Part shown: positions 34,278 to 57,259 of the stretch, in pieces
How the letters are laid out: every line of letters starts with the position of its first letter
How positions within the stretch are numbered: position 1 is the stretch's first letter
From: Psychrobacter aquimaris
Lineage (GTDB): Bacteria > Pseudomonadota > Gammaproteobacteria > Pseudomonadales > Moraxellaceae
Length of the DNA stretch: 64,000 bases
NCBI RefSeq assembly: GCF_016107525.1
Contig: NZ_JABASR010000001.1
Span: 372,001 to 436,000 of the forward strand
Direction of reading: 5' to 3'
Translations under genes and position numbers: made by a program
The notes under the pieces: model-generated
What the model was told of the DNA's origin: nothing
The model's database searches: none
What the model saw: the letters and a program-made list of their open reading frames with translations, nothing else

Positions 34278-34468
34278 ACGATTCCTTTTAGTTAACACGT
34301 CATAGCCAGCTGTGTTAAATAGTTGGCTATTTTTTATTAACTGCGCGTGTTTCCACGGCTGCCCATTGCGTCCTAAGCAATGCTTGTTTGGCTTTTTTAT
34401 CTGACAAGTTGTTAAATAGTTTTAGCGATTGCTCGCAGGGCGTTTGCCGTTTGGATGTGATGATATTA

Positions 34469-34536
34469 TCACGCCATGTGAAAATAAGTCAATATTAAAT
34501 ATCACATTACGTGATTTTATAAGTTTCATTATGTGA
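34469..34536. promoter_or_regulatory. Left operator cluster (OL-like) with 13-bp TCAC-n5-GTGA sites
   Basis: TCACGCCATGTGA (34469-34481), TCACATTACGTGA (34502-34514) and a weaker TTTCATTATGTGA (34524-34536). Two match the TCAC-n5-GTGA pattern of the sites beside the repressor gene at 40125-40216. They sit just upstream of the leftward early operon, so one repressor should silence both operons, as in lambda. Confidence 0.75.
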
Positions 34537-35761: not shown

Positions 35762-35787
35762 AAAAACCCACCGTGAGGTGGGTTTTT
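35762..35787. terminator. Bidirectional terminator between convergent cargo genes
   Basis: AAAAAACCCACC-GTGA-GGTGGGTTTTT, T tracts on both strands, between the small exported protein (stop 35737) and the leftward methyltransferase (stop 35805). Confidence 0.88.
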
Positions 35788-35804: not shown

Positions 35805-36659
35805 TTAGGCCATCTTCAGTCTTTCATGTTCAATGCTATCAAAGTGCGATGAGGTAATAAACAGCTCATTACCAACTCTTTTCTTTGCGGCACTGTAGTT
35901 GATATCAAACTGGTACTGTGCAAATTCTTTGTATAAATCACTAATTTCAGGGGTGTTGTCATAAGTAAGTAACCATGGCAAATCCGTTTTGGCCAACTTT
36001 TCAGAAATGGCCGCATGGTCTTTATGATTATAAAAATTAGTGTATAAAGACTGGCCTTTATTATAGTACGGAGGGTCTACCATGAGCAGGGGCTTTGGAA
36101 GTGTAAGACTCTCTAGCTTTTCAATGAACTCGATCGCATCCATATTATAAATATGAATTTTATCTTTAATCGCAGCAATCTGATGAACTTTTTTTATCAA
36201 AGCTACCTTGTTGAAGCGGCAATCCATTCTATATGCACCATTTTGCTTCTTTCCGCCTATTACTCCAGCTTTAATGATACCAGATCGATTGGTACGGTTA
36301 AGGAAGAGTGTAGAAAACGCAAGCTCTAAAGGATCCACAGTATCTTTAATATCCTGTATTGCTTTTTGCTTATACCATTCGTCCATATCAATTTTGGTTA
36401 AACTAATAAGATTGGCTAGCTCTTCTGGTTGATGGACTATAGCGCTCCATAATGAGGAAATCGATTGATCTATATCATTAAGGTGCAGCTCTTCAACCAC
36501 ATTGTTGGTTAATAGTCTTAGGGCAAGACCACAGCCCCCAGCATAAGGCTCAGCGTATTGGCACAGTTGCATATCATGGCTCACAACAACGTCACGAGTC
36601 ATATCGTATATGCTGGCTTTACCACCAGGATAGCGCAGAGGAGAAAGTGAGCGTTTCAT
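35805..36659 (-). CDS. D12-class adenine-N6 DNA methyltransferase (Dam-like)
   Basis: 284 residues. It opens with SPLRYPGGKASIYD, as D12/Dam enzymes do; the S-adenosylmethionine motif is AEPYAGGCGLALRLL (near 36-50), followed by LFLNRTNRSG. The catalytic DPPYY motif lies in LLMVDPPYYNKG (near 190-201). It methylates adenine N6 in a short unknown DNA site. It lies 78 bp after the ATPase/Toprim gene on the same strand, so the two are probably co-expressed in the lysogen. It may protect DNA from that partner or from host restriction. Confidence 0.88.
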   Translation of the reverse strand: MKRSLSPLRYPGGKASIYDMTRDVVVSHDMQLCQYAEPYAGGCGLALRLLTNNVVEELHLNDIDQSISSLWSAIVHQPEELANLISLTKIDMDEWYKQKAIQDIKDTVDPLELAFSTLFLNRTNRSGIIKAGVIGGKKQNGAYRMDCRFNKVALIKKVHQIAAIKDKIHIYNMDAIEFIEKLESLTLPKPLLMVDPPYYNKGQSLYTNFYNHKDHAAISEKLAKTDLPWLLTYDNTPEISDLYKEFAQYQFDINYSAAKKRVGNELFITSSHFDSIEHERLKMA

Positions 36660-36737
36660 TGATTCTTTACCTTAACCATATTTCGTATCATAACAAACTT
36701 ATTTTAACCTAATCTCTATCTTACTTACAGATATGTT

Positions 36738-38450
36738 TTAAGTGAAATACGTATAAACATCCGATTTCTGAACTCTTTTATCTTTTATTAATATATCTTT
36801 AATTTTACTTATAAATAATTCTTCAAAATCAGATTTCATATGAGGGTTTTTTTTCAAAAAATACTCTATAGGGTTGTTTTTAATAGTTTTAAATAGCTTT
36901 TGAAAATCACTGTCGTTATAGAAGTTTTTGAAAACACTACGAATAGCATTAGTTTCAGTATTGCTTAACTCTTTTTCAATTATTTCATCGAAATTAAAAT
37001 CAAAACCCTCAGGATAATTATTTAAACTTAATCTTTTTATTATTTCCTGTGTGCATCTATTAGCAATGAAATTTGTCTTATTGTAACCAATGTTATTTTT
37101 CCAAAAATCATCTTCTTTTGGAAGGTTGTATAGGAAACTAAAGATCAGCCTGTCAGGCGGTTGAGTACTAGGAAGCAAAATAATGCTTTTATTTTCTGTG
37201 CTATTTACAACTACATCAGCATCTAGCACTATAATACTGTTTTCAGAAAATTCTGGTATCTTATGTTTAACAAGCTTCAAGTAGTCCTTACAACCCATAC
37301 TAACATCTTTCAAAGGATTTATAATTTTTCTAATTTTTCTATTGGTAACTAGGCGATTGAAAAAGTCTACTGCTTCCTTATCTTCGAAATAGATATTAAT
37401 TATAGGCAAGGCTATTTCATCAGATACTCTTTTGGTTTTTATATGTAAGTCGGCGTAAATATCACTCCAACTATAATCATTACGCACTTGCAATTTTCCA
37501 TGACTATCAGTTAAAAATATGCTTTTAAAGTTATTCTCTTTTGTTCCTTTTTCATTTTCGCTCTTCTCGAATATTTTTTCTATTATAGTAGGAGAGTGTG
37601 ATGAAATAATAATTTGTATATTGTATTTATTACTATATTTTATTAGAACATCTATAATTCTATCCTGTGCAAAAGGAAATAGACCTGCATCTAATTCATC
37701 AATAATTAAAATACCGCCGTGATAATCGCTATATTCCTCTTTAAGTCTTTTGAAAGAAAATAATGCTTGAACTATTTGCCCTACATTATCCTCTCCAGAG
37801 GAAACGGATTCATGGTCATAATCTTGTCCATGAACTACAGACGAGTCTATAGTTCCTTTAGTTGACGTAATATGAGTACCTTTGTCTTTGCCTATAATTT
37901 CATTACAGCAGCTGACAAAGTCGGCTTGATTTTTTTTAAGATATTCTAAGTCATATACTTTATCATCATTTCGATCAGCTACGGGAATAAGTCTTTTTAA
38001 GCTAAGGTAGATTAATGGATGTGTAACATTTCTAGATGTATTGCTACTTGTCGCAGTTGGTAGGTTATTGCGTACGACGGCTCTATGAGTTCTACCACTA
38101 GTAGCTGGCATAGTTAACTTCAAGTTTTCAATATTTTGTCTGAAGTAAGCATCATAAACGTCATATATGACACTCATTTCTCCTGGCTTATCATATACCT
38201 CTGAGAGACGGAAATGCTCACTAAATTTAGATTTGAACTGTTTACCACTTAAGGTTTCATGATCTATCTTTTGATCACTTGCATGGTCTTTATCAAAACT
38301 AAATATTTGAGCTACTAGCCCTAAAATTGTTGATTTAGCCGTACCGTTTTTCCCACTAATTACAGTAAGCCTTTCCCCAAAATCAATCTCTACATTTGAC
38401 ATGTTTCTAAATTTTTCTACGACCATCTTTTTTAGGATAGTAGATCTCAT
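36738..38450 (-). CDS. ABC-type ATPase with Toprim-like C-terminal domain (OLD-like), defence candidate
   Basis: 570 residues from ATG 38450, which has AGAGG eight bases upstream; the frame starts 11 codons earlier without a site. An SMC/ABC-like ATPase: Walker A SGKNGTAKST (near 32-41), signature-like VSSGEDNVGQ, Walker B GGILIIDELDAGLFP, and a switch His in IISSHSPTIIE. The C-terminal half has NIYFEDKEAVDFF and SIIVLDADVV, the Glu and Asp-x-Asp pattern of Toprim nucleases. This layout matches OLD-family ATP-dependent nucleases, many of which act against phages. The coding sequence is visibly more AT-rich than its neighbours, suggesting separate acquisition. Confidence 0.75.
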   Translation of the reverse strand: MRSTILKKMVVEKFRNMSNVEIDFGERLTVISGKNGTAKSTILGLVAQIFSFDKDHASDQKIDHETLSGKQFKSKFSEHFRLSEVYDKPGEMSVIYDVYDAYFRQNIENLKLTMPATSGRTHRAVVRNNLPTATSSNTSRNVTHPLIYLSLKRLIPVADRNDDKVYDLEYLKKNQADFVSCCNEIIGKDKGTHITSTKGTIDSSVVHGQDYDHESVSSGEDNVGQIVQALFSFKRLKEEYSDYHGGILIIDELDAGLFPFAQDRIIDVLIKYSNKYNIQIIISSHSPTIIEKIFEKSENEKGTKENNFKSIFLTDSHGKLQVRNDYSWSDIYADLHIKTKRVSDEIALPIINIYFEDKEAVDFFNRLVTNRKIRKIINPLKDVSMGCKDYLKLVKHKIPEFSENSIIVLDADVVVNSTENKSIILLPSTQPPDRLIFSFLYNLPKEDDFWKNNIGYNKTNFIANRCTQEIIKRLSLNNYPEGFDFNFDEIIEKELSNTETNAIRSVFKNFYNDSDFQKLFKTIKNNPIEYFLKKNPHMKSDFEELFISKIKDILIKDKRVQKSDVYTYFT

Positions 38451-38593
38451 GCTTTTTGCCTCTAAATTAGAGTTACTGATCATTATTTATAAGTTTTTTA
38501 CTAAAAATATTCAGATTGAATTTAAATAAAATCTTCTTATATAAAGAATTATTGATATAGCTCTACTACAAATTTTATTTATCTGACATTAAC

Positions 38594-38992
38594 CTATTCC
38601 CTCTGCTCACCACACGCCTTCAACCCCACCTCTCTAGCCTCACTCAAGTCAGCACCTTTCTTAATGCTATACGGCACGTTTGGAACTAAACCTGCTTGCT
38701 TTAGAGACTCTGCAGCCGCCTTATTAAGCGGAGTGCCAATCGAAGACTCATCAATATAGCCTGCAGGTTCAAAATATACCTCAGTGCCAAACTCTGGATA
38801 ATAAACACAGGATATTTCACCTGATGTCGTAAATGGGTAGGGGCCATCATGATCAGCGGACCAGAATATTTCATGCACTACAACATAGCCAGAAACAAAT
38901 TTACTAGCGTAACTGTCATTGTGAGAAGGGGTGCATGCAGCTAAGGATAAGACAGCAATGCCAATTAACCACCTGGGCAAATTGATTCGCAT
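38594..38992 (-). CDS. Small lipoprotein
   Basis: 132 residues with a lipoprotein signal peptide: LIGIAVLSLAACTPS, lipobox L-A-A-C with Cys near residue 20. The mature part has SWSADHDGPYPF-like aromatic stretches and two further cysteines. Its start lies inside the end of the Excalibur-domain gene (28-bp overlap), so the two are translated together. As cell-surface cargo in an immunity region, a superinfection-exclusion role is possible but unproven. Confidence 0.7.
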   Translation of the reverse strand: MRINLPRWLIGIAVLSLAACTPSHNDSYASKFVSGYVVVHEIFWSADHDGPYPFTTSGEISCVYYPEFGTEVYFEPAGYIDESSIGTPLNKAAAESLKQAGLVPNVPYSIKKGADLSEAREVGLKACGEQRE

Positions 38993-39380: not shown

Positions 39381-40088
39381 TTAGTATTCGACATATTTAC
39401 CCACCACCTTACCTACTAAGTTGCAGTCACCCATTGGCGTCATTCTTTGTTCGTGCCAATTGGGATTGAGCGGACGTAGATACATATCTTCCGATGTTTC
39501 ACCTAGAACTAACTGCTTAAACGTTGCTTCCGTGTCGTTGTTGCATTGAACTATCACAAGATCATTGTTTTTTAGCGCAAACAATCCGGTCTGAGGTTCA
39601 ACGTAAATAATGTCGTCTGGATCAAACTTAGGCAGCATGCTTTCGCCTCGTACAATCAAGGCAAAACCATTTTTTGATAGATTATTTGGTCTTGATATCC
39701 TGCCTATAGCATCATCAAAAGTAACAGCATCCACATTAGACCAACTACCAGCAGCCACCCAACTTAAAATAGGCACTTCATCGGAGGTTTCAGCCATAGG
39801 TATATTCACAGTACCTACTGGAGCTGGCATGTCATGAGCATCACCATTTTGAATGGCATGAATCTTACTGCGCAGGCTAGCTATTGACGGCTTAATGTCT
39901 TGAACACCATCTAATATGTAATTAGCATCCCCACCGTACTTAGCCGCGGCTGCTAAAGCACCTTCCTTTGATACACCTCTTTTAACCCAGTTTGCTACTG
40001 TAGAGGCACCAACATTTAAGTCGCGTGAAATATCAGAATTTCTATCTGTTTTTGCGACTTCTTGAAGTCTTTTCATACTTTCGTGCAT
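39381..40088 (-). CDS. Prophage repressor, LexA/CI-like with S24 self-cleavage domain
   Basis: 235 residues. N-terminal helix-turn-helix (about 15-45; ISRDLNVGASTVANWVKRG). C-terminal S24 peptidase domain: cleavage site Ala-Gly in SWVAAGSW (near 110), nucleophile Ser in RGESMLPKF (near 150) and general-base Lys in ATFKQL (near 190). The protein should keep the prophage silent and be inactivated by RecA during DNA damage. It is divergent from a Cro-like gene, with 13-bp operators in between and again at 34.5 kb. Confidence 0.92.
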   Translation of the reverse strand: MHESMKRLQEVAKTDRNSDISRDLNVGASTVANWVKRGVSKEGALAAAAKYGGDANYILDGVQDIKPSIASLRSKIHAIQNGDAHDMPAPVGTVNIPMAETSDEVPILSWVAAGSWSNVDAVTFDDAIGRISRPNNLSKNGFALIVRGESMLPKFDPDDIIYVEPQTGLFALKNNDLVIVQCNNDTEATFKQLVLGETSEDMYLRPLNPNWHEQRMTPMGDCNLVGKVVGKYVEY

Positions 40089-40124: not shown

Positions 40125-40216
40125 ACACAACGTGTGAGTAACTTTGTTTCACACGGACGAACTTGTTTATTGCCTTTTATTTCACACTATGTGATAATAT
40201 ATTTCATATCATGTGA
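40125..40216. promoter_or_regulatory. Right operator cluster (OR-like) between repressor and Cro
   Basis: 13-bp sites with TCAC-n5-GTGA spacing: ACACAACGTGTGA (40125-40137), a half-site starting TCACACGGA (40149), TCACACTATGTGA (40182-40194) and TCATATCATGTGA (40204-40216). A rightward -10-like TAATAT overlaps the third site; TATAAT on the minus strand near 40110-40115 could serve the repressor gene. Overlap of sites and promoters fits a lysis-lysogeny switch. Confidence 0.8.
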
Positions 40217-52023: not shown

Positions 52024-53166
52024 ATGAAAGGTTCTTCAGATATGCCACCTTTTGGTGACATCCTCAACGCGGGTATTCAGGCAGTTAAGCAATTATGCAA
52101 TCGAACCAACGGTATTACTCCTAAAGCTTTTGATAAGAAGGTAGAAGAAATTACGGGAATTACAGGCGAGCATTTAAAAATATCTTTTGTGAATCCTGAG
52201 TTTCCTATACATGCAGACGATGAAGATGAGGACATGGTTGATTCTTGTTATGCGTATTTAACCGAGATAATGCTATCTTGCCTAGTGGCAATAGGCGCGA
52301 TAAAAAGTGAGGTTTTCAATATTGAAGCGAATCTAGGGCAGTCTTCTATTCACCTTATCCCCTTCAATAGCAGGATTACGCCTGAAAATTTAATACAGAT
52401 AGATCCCTTTGGTAAGATTTATTTTTGGCTGGCAGGCGATAATTTTGCAAATTACCGACACTCTGATGTTTCTTCTAATACATACCAGTCGAACCTAGGT
52501 AGATTCGATTCTAAGAGCTTCCGAGTCTTGCGCGAGGTTAATAAAGCTGCTTATGGGGAAAAAGGCGACCCTTTAATTAATCATTTAATTAGCGAAACGA
52601 TGCGCCGTACTTCTGTATTTATGAACAACTATGCCAATGTAATTGCAGCGAACGACCATGTAAAAGTGACGCCAAAAATGATACTGGATGAGGTTTTTCA
52701 TTTAACCCCATTACAGTTTGAGCATCTTTGTTTGAGTGTGGTTGAGGCCTCGTTAAAGCGAGAGGATCCAAATGCCATTTTCAGCGCAAAGCATACAGGA
52801 CAGAGTAATGACGGTGGTATAGACGGTATTATCACGCAAGACTGTGGCGCTGATGATATTCATACTTATTATATCCAAGCTAAGCAGTACAGCGAAGGTA
52901 ATAATATATCAAACAGAGAACTGCGCAATTTCGTTGGTGGTTTTACACCTGATACTAAGTATCATCATGGTATATTTATTACTACAAGTGATTTTACCAA
53001 GCCAGCACTGGATTATGCTCAAAACCTAAATAGCCATAGTTTAATTTTAATTGATCAGATGGCTTTATTGGATTTGATGCTAGAGCATGAAATAGGTTTA
53101 GAGAAAGTACAGACAGAAACGTTAGTTATGAATAAGTCGTTCTTTAAAAAATTACGAAAGCATTAA
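52024..53166 (+). CDS. Mrr-type restriction endonuclease (cargo gene)
   Basis: 380 residues. The C-terminal 160 residues are an Mrr_cat domain: LTPLQFEHLCLSVVEA, SNDGGIDGIITQ, HTYYIQAKQYS, giving the PD-(D/E)XK set Asp...Gln-x-Lys, followed by GIFITTSDFTKPALDYA. The N-terminal 220 residues are not the usual short Mrr winged helix and may be a specificity or sensor domain. Mrr enzymes cut foreign or modified DNA. It lies alone between two terminators and is no virion protein, so it is a moron that may guard the lysogen against other phages. Confidence 0.85.
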   Translation: MKGSSDMPPFGDILNAGIQAVKQLCNRTNGITPKAFDKKVEEITGITGEHLKISFVNPEFPIHADDEDEDMVDSCYAYLTEIMLSCLVAIGAIKSEVFNIEANLGQSSIHLIPFNSRITPENLIQIDPFGKIYFWLAGDNFANYRHSDVSSNTYQSNLGRFDSKSFRVLREVNKAAYGEKGDPLINHLISETMRRTSVFMNNYANVIAANDHVKVTPKMILDEVFHLTPLQFEHLCLSVVEASLKREDPNAIFSAKHTGQSNDGGIDGIITQDCGADDIHTYYIQAKQYSEGNNISNRELRNFVGGFTPDTKYHHGIFITTSDFTKPALDYAQNLNSHSLILIDQMALLDLMLEHEIGLEKVQTETLVMNKSFFKKLRKH

Positions 53167-55708: not shown

Positions 55709-57259
55709 GTGATAGAAAATCTTTACGAGTTGCCTGAGTGGGCCGAGGTTTGCAAGCGCTATCGCTACAACATAACACGCTTTGCCGTTGAAGCATTGGG
55801 CATGACTTATGCCAACAATCAAGGCGTAACCCCGCAACAACAGACGCTATTTCAATCAATAGTCGTACCCGGTAGCCGCACCACGGTAGCGTCTGGTCAT
55901 GGTACGGGAAAATCAAGGTCGGCTGGCATTGTGGCCTTATGGCATCTACTCTTCTACCCTGAGTCGGTCATGCTGTTTACTGCCCCGCAAATCGGACAGC
56001 TGAGAACGGTCGTTTGGAAAGAGATTAATATCTGTTTGCAGCGGCTCAAGAACAACCCATCTTTGGGCTGGCTTGCTGATTTCGTGGTGGTATTGGCTGA
56101 AAAAATCTACATTAAAAACTTTAAAGATACTTGGTTTGTGTTCGCCAAAACTGCGCCTAAACACTCACCAACCAATATCGCTGGTCAACATGGCGATTAC
56201 TACATGGTATGGGGTGATGAAGCTGCTGGTATTGATGACGAGGTAATGGAAGTCGTCATCGGTGCATTGACGCACGAGAATAACCGCGCTGTACTCACAA
56301 GCCAGCCTGCCACCAGTACCGGCTTTTTCTACGATACGCACCATACGTTAAGCCGCACCAGTGGCGGCATATGGACCAATCTTGTATTCAATGGCGAAGA
56401 GTCGCCGCTAGTTAGCAAAACAAAACTTGTCGAAGCATTGTACCAGTACGGTAGCCGCGACCATCCTGGTTATCTGATCCGCATACGTGGACTATTCCCT
56501 GAATTAAAGGGCAAATATCTACTGACTCGCACTGAGATCAGTAACATGCTTGCACGTAAGCCGGTGGTGACTGAGGATGGCGAGTACGGTTATATCGTCA
56601 CAGTCGATGTCGGCGGTGACGTTGGCCGAGATCATAGCGTTATCACAGTGATGAAAGTCGTTGATAAGGATTATAACGGCCGCATTGAGCGCCATGTGCA
56701 TGTGGTTGATATACCGCTGTTTAGCAATAGGGCAAACATCAATGAGCTAAAAGCGCAAATATACAGCGTTATGGCTGAGTATGCAGGCGCAACATTGGTT
56801 ATTGATCCAATGGGCGCTGGCATGGGGCTATGCCAGTTACTCAAGTCCGAGGGCTTGTACTTTGAAACGGTCAACTGGGGAGTACCTTGCTTTAACAATA
56901 ATTTAAAGGCGCTTTACTTCAACAAACGTGCTCACGCCTATGTATCGATGGCAAAATCCGTTGAGCGCGGTATCTTTAGTGTGAGTGACAAGGTTCGTAG
57001 TCAGCATCAAATGGTTAAGGATATGGAAACGCAAATGAGCCGCTTGCCGTACTTCTTTGATGAGCGTTCACGCTGGGGACTTATGAGTAAAAAAGATATG
57101 GCAAAAGAGGGTATAACCTCGCCCGATTTAGCCGATACCTTCGCTTTTGGCTTTATGGAGCGGATAAGCTACTCACCAGTTAATAAGGCGGAATTTGTCG
57201 GTAGTGTCAAAGATAAAGAGCAGTGGGAAGACTTAAACGAGCTTGCGGCTATGCTTTAG
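55709..57259 (+). CDS. terL: Large terminase subunit
   Basis: 516 residues, GTG start with AAGG six bases before it. ATPase: Walker A SGHGTGKSRS (near 62-71), Walker B YMVWGDEA (near 165-172), coupling motif VLTSQPA. RNase H-like nuclease: VTVDVGGDVGRDHS, LVIDPMGAG, and SPDLADTFAFG carry the three metal-binding Asp residues. It pumps and cuts phage DNA at the capsid portal. Family size and motifs are complete. Confidence 0.93.
   Translation: MIENLYELPEWAEVCKRYRYNITRFAVEALGMTYANNQGVTPQQQTLFQSIVVPGSRTTVASGHGTGKSRSAGIVALWHLLFYPESVMLFTAPQIGQLRTVVWKEINICLQRLKNNPSLGWLADFVVVLAEKIYIKNFKDTWFVFAKTAPKHSPTNIAGQHGDYYMVWGDEAAGIDDEVMEVVIGALTHENNRAVLTSQPATSTGFFYDTHHTLSRTSGGIWTNLVFNGEESPLVSKTKLVEALYQYGSRDHPGYLIRIRGLFPELKGKYLLTRTEISNMLARKPVVTEDGEYGYIVTVDVGGDVGRDHSVITVMKVVDKDYNGRIERHVHVVDIPLFSNRANINELKAQIYSVMAEYAGATLVIDPMGAGMGLCQLLKSEGLYFETVNWGVPCFNNNLKALYFNKRAHAYVSMAKSVERGIFSVSDKVRSQHQMVKDMETQMSRLPYFFDERSRWGLMSKKDMAKEGITSPDLADTFAFGFMERISYSPVNKAEFVGSVKDKEQWEDLNELAAML

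What the first reader, a model, noticed from the sequence alone, without database searches (positions are those of the whole stretch)
35805..38450. Adenine methyltransferase paired with an OLD-like ATPase/Toprim protein between the two operator clusters
Seen: a D12 methyltransferase (DPPYY) 78 bp downstream of an ABC ATPase with a Glu...Asp-x-Asp Toprim-like C-terminus, same strand, in the region active in lysogens. Known: OLD-family nucleases and restriction-modification pairs defend against phages, and lambda keeps rexAB in the matching place. Inference: the pair may be a two-gene defence system in which methylation marks self DNA and the ATPase/nuclease attacks unmarked or invading DNA. I do not recognise this exact pairing as a named system. 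The ATPase gene is markedly AT-rich, as imported defence genes often are.
Basis: partly seen in the sequence, partly recalled or inferred. Interest (0 to 1): 0.75.

Follow-up and report, generated by a model that had tools for sequence, protein, structure and literature searches.

The report
Prophage methylase with swappable nuclease partners
A prophage-like region of a bacterial genome carries a gene for a predicted DNA-adenine methylase directly behind a gene for a predicted OLD-type ATPase-nuclease; in two related regions the methylase gene is almost the same while its neighbour is a different gene, so the pair is likely a defence unit in which methylation would mark the cell's own DNA and the partner would attack unmarked phages.

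Summary
Window 35805-38450 (minus strand) holds an ABC ATPase with a Toprim-like C-terminus and, 78 bp downstream, a D12-type adenine methyltransferase, in an apparent transcription unit behind a CI-like repressor. The methyltransferase is PD-Lambda-5_B, a subunit of an experimentally validated E. coli prophage defence, but its partner here is an OLD-like ATPase-Toprim, not PD-Lambda-5_A. The pairing is real: the same methyltransferase lies within 2.3 kb in 46 of 52 genome loci and 65 of 79 viral loci fetched by the ATPase (near-copies included), in five phyla; 85 of 5426 complete E. coli genomes hold both genes. The new point is modularity. Two related loci keep the methyltransferase (92-94% identical) and much of the repressor but replace exactly the segment between: one has PD-Lambda-5_A, the other an ATPase 27.5% identical. 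On a tree of 127 methyltransferases the partner changes 10 times by parsimony, at least 5 on supported branches. I read this as methylation-marked self-protection with plug-in effectors. Against: two ATPase lineages lack the methyltransferase, the Toprim fold is weakly supported, and no activity, target site or phage defence was tested. No paper found in the held library describes the pairing.

The parts
35805..36659 (-). Predicted D12-class adenine DNA methyltransferase, 284 aa (PD-Lambda-5_B family)
   Evidence: PADLOC PDLC04018 384.5 bits over 1-279/291; Dam-family TIGR00571 58 bits, below its cut-off; no Pfam match at E<=1; DPPY at 36066-36077 invariant in 18 of 18 aligned
36738..38450 (-). 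Predicted OLD-like ABC ATPase with Toprim-like C-terminus, 570 aa (ORF opens at 38483)
   Evidence: AAA_15 59.7 bits; PHROG 3940, unknown function, 498 bits over nearly the full length; Foldseek best match of the full model T. scotoductus OLD 6p74, E 8e-12
38331..38354 (-). Walker A of the ATPase (ORF residues 44-51, GKNGTAKS)
   Evidence: G44, N46, K50 and S51 in 139 of 139; G47 in 134 of 139
37380..37385 (-). Toprim-like Glu367-Asp368
   Evidence: 139 of 139; follows the first core strand of the C-terminal domain model
37215..37223 (-). Toprim-like Asp421-x-Asp423
   Evidence: 139 of 139; follows the third core strand in the model, mean pLDDT 93.7
35762..35787 (-). Hairpin of 11 pairs plus T-run behind the MTase
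   Evidence: hairpin-like sequence also follows the MTase in L243 and L159 (by eye)
36660..38600 (.). Exchanged segment: replaced by other genes in L159 and L243 while both sides stay homologous
   Evidence: homology stops at 38600-38603 and resumes at the MTase start codon 36659
38594..38992 (-). Small lipoprotein-like gene (by eye), upstream edge of the exchange
   Evidence: 66% identical in L159, 74% in L243
38965..39258 (-). Small Excalibur-domain gene
   Evidence: PF05901 32.1 bits; 88% identical in L159, no match in L243
39381..40088 (-). CI-like repressor with S24 peptidase domain, head of the apparent unit
   Evidence: PF00717 62.8 bits; phrog_4 transcriptional repressor
40180..40200 (+). 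Operator-like site, repressor side
   Evidence: the pattern was copied from this site
34463..34487 (+). Overlapping operator-like sites beyond the MTase end

Best explanation
The pair is likely a prophage-borne, restriction-modification-like defence unit in which the methyltransferase is predicted to mark the lysogen's own DNA and the OLD-type ATPase-Toprim protein is predicted to cleave incoming phage DNA that lacks the mark. Shown: the two genes sit together behind the CI-like repressor, they occur together across phyla, and the slot in front of the methyltransferase holds different genes in related loci, with sharp edges. Inferred: expression in the lysogen, methylation of a specific adenine site, ATP-driven sensing of unmarked DNA, and cleavage by the Toprim-like domain. 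The methyltransferase would be the constant password; the slot holds this ATPase, a distant ATPase, or PD-Lambda-5_A.
For: MTase = PD-Lambda-5_B, 384 bits; PD-lambda-5 affected plating or plaque size of all but one of a panel of ten phages (PMC9519451 section 7) and was tested in a strain lacking the region with mrr (passage), which fits active adenine methylation (inference). Loci fetched by the ATPase: MTase within 2.3 kb in 46 of 52 genome loci and 65 of 79 viral loci (the two sets overlap and hold near-copies). Loci fetched by the MTase, which do not favour the ATPase: of 38 narrow-family loci, 13 have the ATPase, 22 PD-Lambda-5_A, 1 both, 2 neither; those two sit at a contig start, one beside a PD-Lambda-5_A fragment (PD-Lambda-5_A called by a four-seed profile at E<=1e-8, weakest about 50 bits). 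Of the 42 more distant D12 methyltransferases in that scan, some with short flanks, 0 have either partner. Module swaps: L159 keeps MTase (92%), much of CI (73% over 173 residues) and two small genes but has PD-Lambda-5_A; L243 keeps MTase (94%), much of CI (78% over 169) and one small gene but has an ATPase 27.5% identical. Catalytic residues 139 of 139. PD-Lambda-5_A and the ATPase are unrelated by profile comparison (hhalign probability 0.1%).
Confidence: 0.6

Rival explanations
1. Restriction-linked abortive infection: the ATPase-Toprim would watch the methyltransferase or its mark, and on interference by a phage (DNA mimics, loss of SAM, unmethylated replicating DNA) it would cleave tRNA or other host nucleic acid and stop the cell, in the manner of PARIS or an RM+Abi system.
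Against: Foldseek's best full-length match is the OLD nuclease 6p74, and ABC and Toprim-like parts are fused as in OLD and GajA rather than split as in AriA/AriB. The target was not tested.
Confidence: 0.25
2. The two genes are independent morons: an orphan phage methyltransferase (protection from host restriction, or regulation) that happens to lie beside a stand-alone class 1-like OLD protein.
For: Two ATPase lineages lack the MTase, and the MTase family also stands beside other genes (L005, L011, L019).
Against: The adjacency is too regular: in 102 of 131 ATPase-fetched loci the MTase is directly downstream on the same strand within 600 nt, and the two proteins' distances correlate. 0 of 42 more distant D12 methyltransferases in the scan have either partner.
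Confidence: 0.12
3. The effector attacks methylated DNA: the methyltransferase would mark invading DNA and the partner would cut what is marked.
For: A Mrr_cat domain, from a family recalled to cut methyl-adenine DNA, is encoded in the same window at 52702-53079, so methyl-directed cutting is not foreign to this element.
Against: The cell's own chromosome would be marked too if the MTase is expressed with the repressor. No evidence points to selective marking.
Confidence: 0.03

Closest known systems
PD-lambda-5 (PD-Lambda-5_A + PD-Lambda-5_B), prophage defence of E. coli (PMC9519451)
   Same: Same methyltransferase family, usually in the same downstream position; L159 shows a PD-Lambda-5_A gene in exactly the slot of this ATPase.
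   Different: The effector here is an OLD-like ABC ATPase-Toprim, unrelated in sequence to PD-Lambda-5_A.
OLD-family nucleases: P2 Old (class 1), GajA of Gabija (class 2), retron OLD (class 3)
   Same: N-terminal ABC ATPase and C-terminal Toprim-like domain with conserved Glu and DxD; first three Foldseek matches of the full model are OLD 6p74, GajA 8sm3 and a retron Eco8 chain 9lpa. Like P2 Old, carried by a phage element.
   Different: The constant neighbour is an adenine methyltransferase, not a UvrD-like helicase or a reverse transcriptase; the review seen in passages (PMC10568477) lays out classes 1-3 with no such partner.
HEC-04 / IbfA single-protein ABC ATPase-TOPRIM
   Same: First PADLOC match of the ATPase (HEC-04, 63 bits, best stretch in the ATPase part); HEC-04 defends against T4 and T5 (as told in PMC12111858, passage).
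   Different: Described in those passages as a single protein; no methyltransferase partner is told there.
PARIS (AriA ABC ATPase + AriB Toprim)
   Same: AAA_15-type ATPase (AriA model 59.7 bits) with a Toprim-like effector part; AriB is among the nearest folds of the C-terminal domain.
   Different: Single fused protein of 570 aa; the fused AriAB model fits poorly (40 bits); a methyltransferase is the usual neighbour.

Membership tests
PD-lambda-5 | B subunit: D12 methyltransferase of PDLC04018/04019 | tested here: met
   384.5 and 194.2 bits
PD-lambda-5 | A subunit (PADLOC models PDLC03993-04017) upstream of B | tested here: not met
   No PD-Lambda-5_A among the ATPase's PADLOC matches shown (best 25 of 97; all 16 at E<=1e-12); hhalign probability 0.1% against four A proteins. 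The same models match the partner in L159, L183, L032, L058, L006 and L007
PD-lambda-5 | Blocks phages when cloned | not testable with these tools
   published for PD-lambda-5, unknown for this pair
OLD family | N-terminal ABC ATPase with Walker A, signature, Walker B and His | tested here: met
   key residues in 139 of 139 relatives
OLD family | C-terminal Toprim domain with Glu and DxD | tested here: inconclusive
OLD family | Nuclease activity with divalent metal | not testable with these tools
   needs purified protein
OLD class 1 / 2 / 3 | Stands alone / UvrD-like helicase partner / retron partner | tested here: not met
   Pfam on ten ORFs around shows no UvrD-type helicase or reverse transcriptase; the usual neighbour in relatives is the methyltransferase. 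Two side lineages do stand without it
Type II restriction-modification | Nuclease and methyltransferase recognise the same site | not testable with these tools
   No target site is known for either
PARIS | AriA plus AriB, split or fused (AriAB) | tested here: not met
   None of the other three proteins scanned beside it matches AriB, and the fused AriAB model gives 40 bits with best stretch residues 17-64
HEC-04 | Full-length match to the HEC-04 model | tested here: inconclusive
   63.3 bits, best stretch 157-304 to 130-280 of 494

The most novel reading that the evidence does not exclude
The methyltransferase is the common password of a plug-in immunity platform: one DNA mark protects the lysogen against a whole set of unrelated effectors (two distant OLD-type ATPases, PD-Lambda-5_A and perhaps further genes), which prophages exchange in one fixed slot or stack side by side, changing weapon without changing password.
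Probability: 0.45. Interest if true: 0.78.

Novelty: new variant of a known kind. Interest (0 to 1): 0.62.

Why it matters
PD-lambda-5 was found as a single system. If its methyltransferase is a shared self-mark for exchangeable effectors, then a phage protein family listed as unknown (PHROG 3940, 498 bits here) becomes a defence family with a testable logic, detection that asks for PD-Lambda-5_A would miss it, and the OLD nucleases gain a class whose self/non-self rule would be DNA methylation, an open question for this family. Natural swaps (window, L159, L243) make the question directly testable, and E. coli homologues exist in 85 of 5426 complete genomes.

Tried and rejected
Chance neighbours: rejected. 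ATPase as a diverged PD-Lambda-5_A: rejected. PDLC04017 alone was searched in 57 genomes of the genus and order and rang nowhere, controls included, so that empty answer was not used. Methyltransferase elsewhere in the MTase-less records: none by the window's own protein (0 of 14 records, 9 of them the MTase-less ones; no positive control in that call) or by PF02086 (0 of 9, with matches in both other records given and in 4 of 14 control genomes; but PF02086 does not match the window's own MTase at E<=1, so it can miss members); PF01555 rings in 3 of 9, another methyltransferase type found in only some. Broken-gene ratchet test: too few cases. VIA-align on the full model lists mainly ATPase domains. 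Folds not listed were not used as evidence. Papers: word searches for the pairing (listings; two searches returned no paper) found none that describes it; passages seen; section 7 of PMC9519451 read whole. Krishnan et al. 2020 (PMC7544218), a survey of ABC ATPase conflict systems that may mention such operons, is not held, so 'not in print' holds for the held library alone. In P. aeruginosa PAO1161 an OLD-like gene (PA1939) and a methyltransferase (PA2735) were tested by others and reported independent (PMC6945700, passages); by their locus numbers they are not neighbours.

Rows dropped and limits: one search used ATPase ORFs over 1480 nt with wide match only (139 loci, L009 and L016 left out as copies of the window, L027 and L243 both counted though the same gene), and 92 of the 96 clustered ones, those with a methyltransferase of 250 bits or more in the locus, for the distance test. 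One search left out L009, L016, methyltransferases under 250 bits or short, and near-copies at 95% (166 to 127). One search was a first count at 90% (113 clusters: 73 ATPase, 29 PD-Lambda-5_A, 6 both, 5 neither). Both mix loci fetched by either protein, and ATPase-partnered rows are over-sampled. A partner counts within 3 kb. The tree is a quick one (SH-aLRT only; long branches warned of). MAG contigs may be misbinned, which bears on the phylum list; the one Bacillota genome locus (L071) has both genes interrupted, but Streptococcus phages carry both.

Full report
What is there. On the minus strand of the window, behind a CI-like S24 repressor (39381-40088) and two small genes, lie a 570-aa ATPase (36738-38450; the ORF opens at 38483) and, after 78 bp, a 284-aa methyltransferase (35805-36659). 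Relatives of the ATPase start at the later ATG and AGAGG precedes it. An 11-pair hairpin with a T-run follows the methyltransferase at once (35787-35762), and the pattern scan finds no minus-strand terminator between the repressor and the methyltransferase (the scan's total of 4 is no more than the 3.4 of shuffles, so this is suggestive only). Operator-like sites flank the unit at 40180-40200 and 34463-34487 (a looser pattern is not clearly above chance). Phage-like genes lie nearby (for example a terminase-like ORF at 55709-57259, read by eye), but PF00589 found no integrase inside the window, the nearest on that contig being about 31 kb outside it, and PF03237 found no terminase in the genome. 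I call it a prophage from its immunity region and phage-like genes, not from its ends. The host genus is not named by the tools; a few named hits suggest Psychrobacter (57% and 52% identical proteins), which is inference. In 105 genomes of that genus the ATPase is found in 2 and the methyltransferase in 4, so the pair is rare there.

The pair occurs together. Loci were fetched by the ATPase alone. In 52 bacterial genome loci the methyltransferase is downstream on the same strand within 600 nt in 42, upstream on the same strand in 1, and 2.0-2.3 kb away in 3; in 5 none was found (four stop at a contig end, and L077 is an ATPase fragment), and L079 shows only fragments. In 79 viral loci it is downstream on the same strand within 600 nt in 60, downstream on the opposite strand nearby in 2, upstream in 1, further off in 2 and absent in 14, of which 5 stop at a contig end. 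These sets overlap and hold near-copies; of 96 ATPases distinct at 95%, pooled from all scans, 92 have the methyltransferase in the fetched stretch. The 46 genome loci with a methyltransferase fall, by NCBI names, in Pseudomonadota (38), Actinomycetota (3), Bacteroidota (3), Bacillota (1) and Thermodesulfobacteriota (1). Annotated phages agree: Citrobacter phiNP, Vibrio ValB1MD-2 (convergent) and Streptococcus Javan645 and phiGBSVK-D_GBSInt4, the last two between a CI-type regulator and the integrase. Of 5426 complete E. coli genomes, 85 hold a stretch that covers at least 80% of both phiNP genes at 80-90% identity; in JJ1886 the genes follow the integrase. Of 94 distinct loci looked at, 80 have a same-strand ORF within 700 nt upstream of the ATPase; it matches a phage repressor family in 22 of 80 and Pfam's phage integrase in 7 of 80, so the immunity region is a frequent but not the sole site. 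The two proteins' distances correlate (r 0.655; 2000 permutations at most 0.233; 92 pairs).

The partner is exchangeable. Loci fetched by the methyltransferase (80) split cleanly: 42 distant D12 enzymes with neither partner, and 38 of the narrow family with the ATPase (13), PD-Lambda-5_A (22), both (1) or neither (2); the two with neither begin at contig starts and one has a PD-Lambda-5_A fragment there (365 bits). On a quick tree of 127 methyltransferases, ATPase versus PD-Lambda-5_A needs 10 changes, and for the ATPase label at least 5 are forced by well-supported branches (shuffled mean 35.5, so the label is also strongly clustered). Seven of the 127 loci are labelled as having both; in L002 and L137 the PD-Lambda-5_A match is weak (56-57 bits). 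Three related loci are the clearest case: window, L243 (G470, same genus) and L159 (IMG/VR) share much of the repressor, the lipoprotein-like gene and the methyltransferase (92-94% identical), while homology breaks at the end of the lipoprotein-like gene and resumes at the very start codon of the methyltransferase. In between stand this ATPase, an ATPase 27.5% identical to it, and PD-Lambda-5_A (360 bits). Two further pairs of loci show the same discord between near methyltransferases and far ATPases: L184/L119 (84% and 26%) and L164/L151 (81% and 24%). Other neighbours exist: HerA-like genes in L005, and a mutually related convergent gene pair in L011 and L019 without PADLOC match.

Against. 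Eight near-identical viral loci (97.9% or more) and one relative (55%) carry the ATPase without a detectable D12 methyltransferase in the record; in those looked at the ATPase stands right behind an S24-type repressor. Their ATPases have 60-78 extra N-terminal residues. So the ATPase can do without this methyltransferase, by a means unknown. Cases of one gene interrupted are few: 4 with ATPase interrupted and methyltransferase intact, 1 the other way (a short match, L064), 2 with both interrupted, of 131.

How it likely works. PD-lambda-5 protects E. coli against all but one of ten phages tested, by plating or plaque size; it was handled in a strain lacking the mrr region, and its authors write that it appears to be a compacted prophage RM+Abi system. 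With the same methyltransferase and an OLD-like nuclease in the effector slot, the simplest reading is self-marking by methylation and ATP-dependent attack on unmarked DNA. Whether the attack is on phage DNA (as for OLD and GajA) or on tRNA (as for AriB) is open. Every step from marking to cleavage is inferred.

Known or new. By feature it is not PD-lambda-5 (A subunit not met), not Gabija, not a retron and not PARIS; it looks like a restriction-modification or PD-lambda-5-type system with an OLD-type effector. I found no paper on the pairing in the held library, but one relevant survey is not held. I rate it a new variant of a known kind; the exchangeable-effector logic is the part a specialist would not expect.

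Noticed in passing
window 52702-53079 (+), within ORF 52024-53166: A Mrr_cat domain (81.6 bits) is encoded about 15 kb from the adenine methyltransferase, among phage-like genes; Mrr-type enzymes are recalled to cut methylated DNA, so the two would need compatible sites.
   Followed up: partly
L140-L146, L152 and L148: ATPase relatives without a methyltransferase carry a 60-78 residue N-terminal extension not seen in the three paired ones compared; it may replace the methyltransferase's restraint.
   Followed up: partly
L011:3-1512 and L019:2316-3805: The same methyltransferase family stands beside a convergent pair of genes that are related between the two loci (30% and 38% identity) and match no PADLOC model: a possible further effector type.
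   Followed up: partly
L005:5881-9443: Vibrio phage 10N.286.54.E5_PE002 has the methyltransferase convergent with a three-gene set, two of them with weak HerA matches.
   Followed up: no
L183:1738-5888: ATPase, PD-Lambda-5_A and methyltransferase in one row on one strand: both effectors with one methyltransferase.
   Followed up: partly
window 39381-40088 against L159 and L243: The repressors share much of their length but the window's N-terminal part looks different from that of L159 and L243, suggesting an immunity change beside a conserved methyltransferase.
   Followed up: no
L241:632-1020: A simple repeat coding a run of short identical units lies just upstream of a methyltransferase relative in G456.
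   Followed up: no
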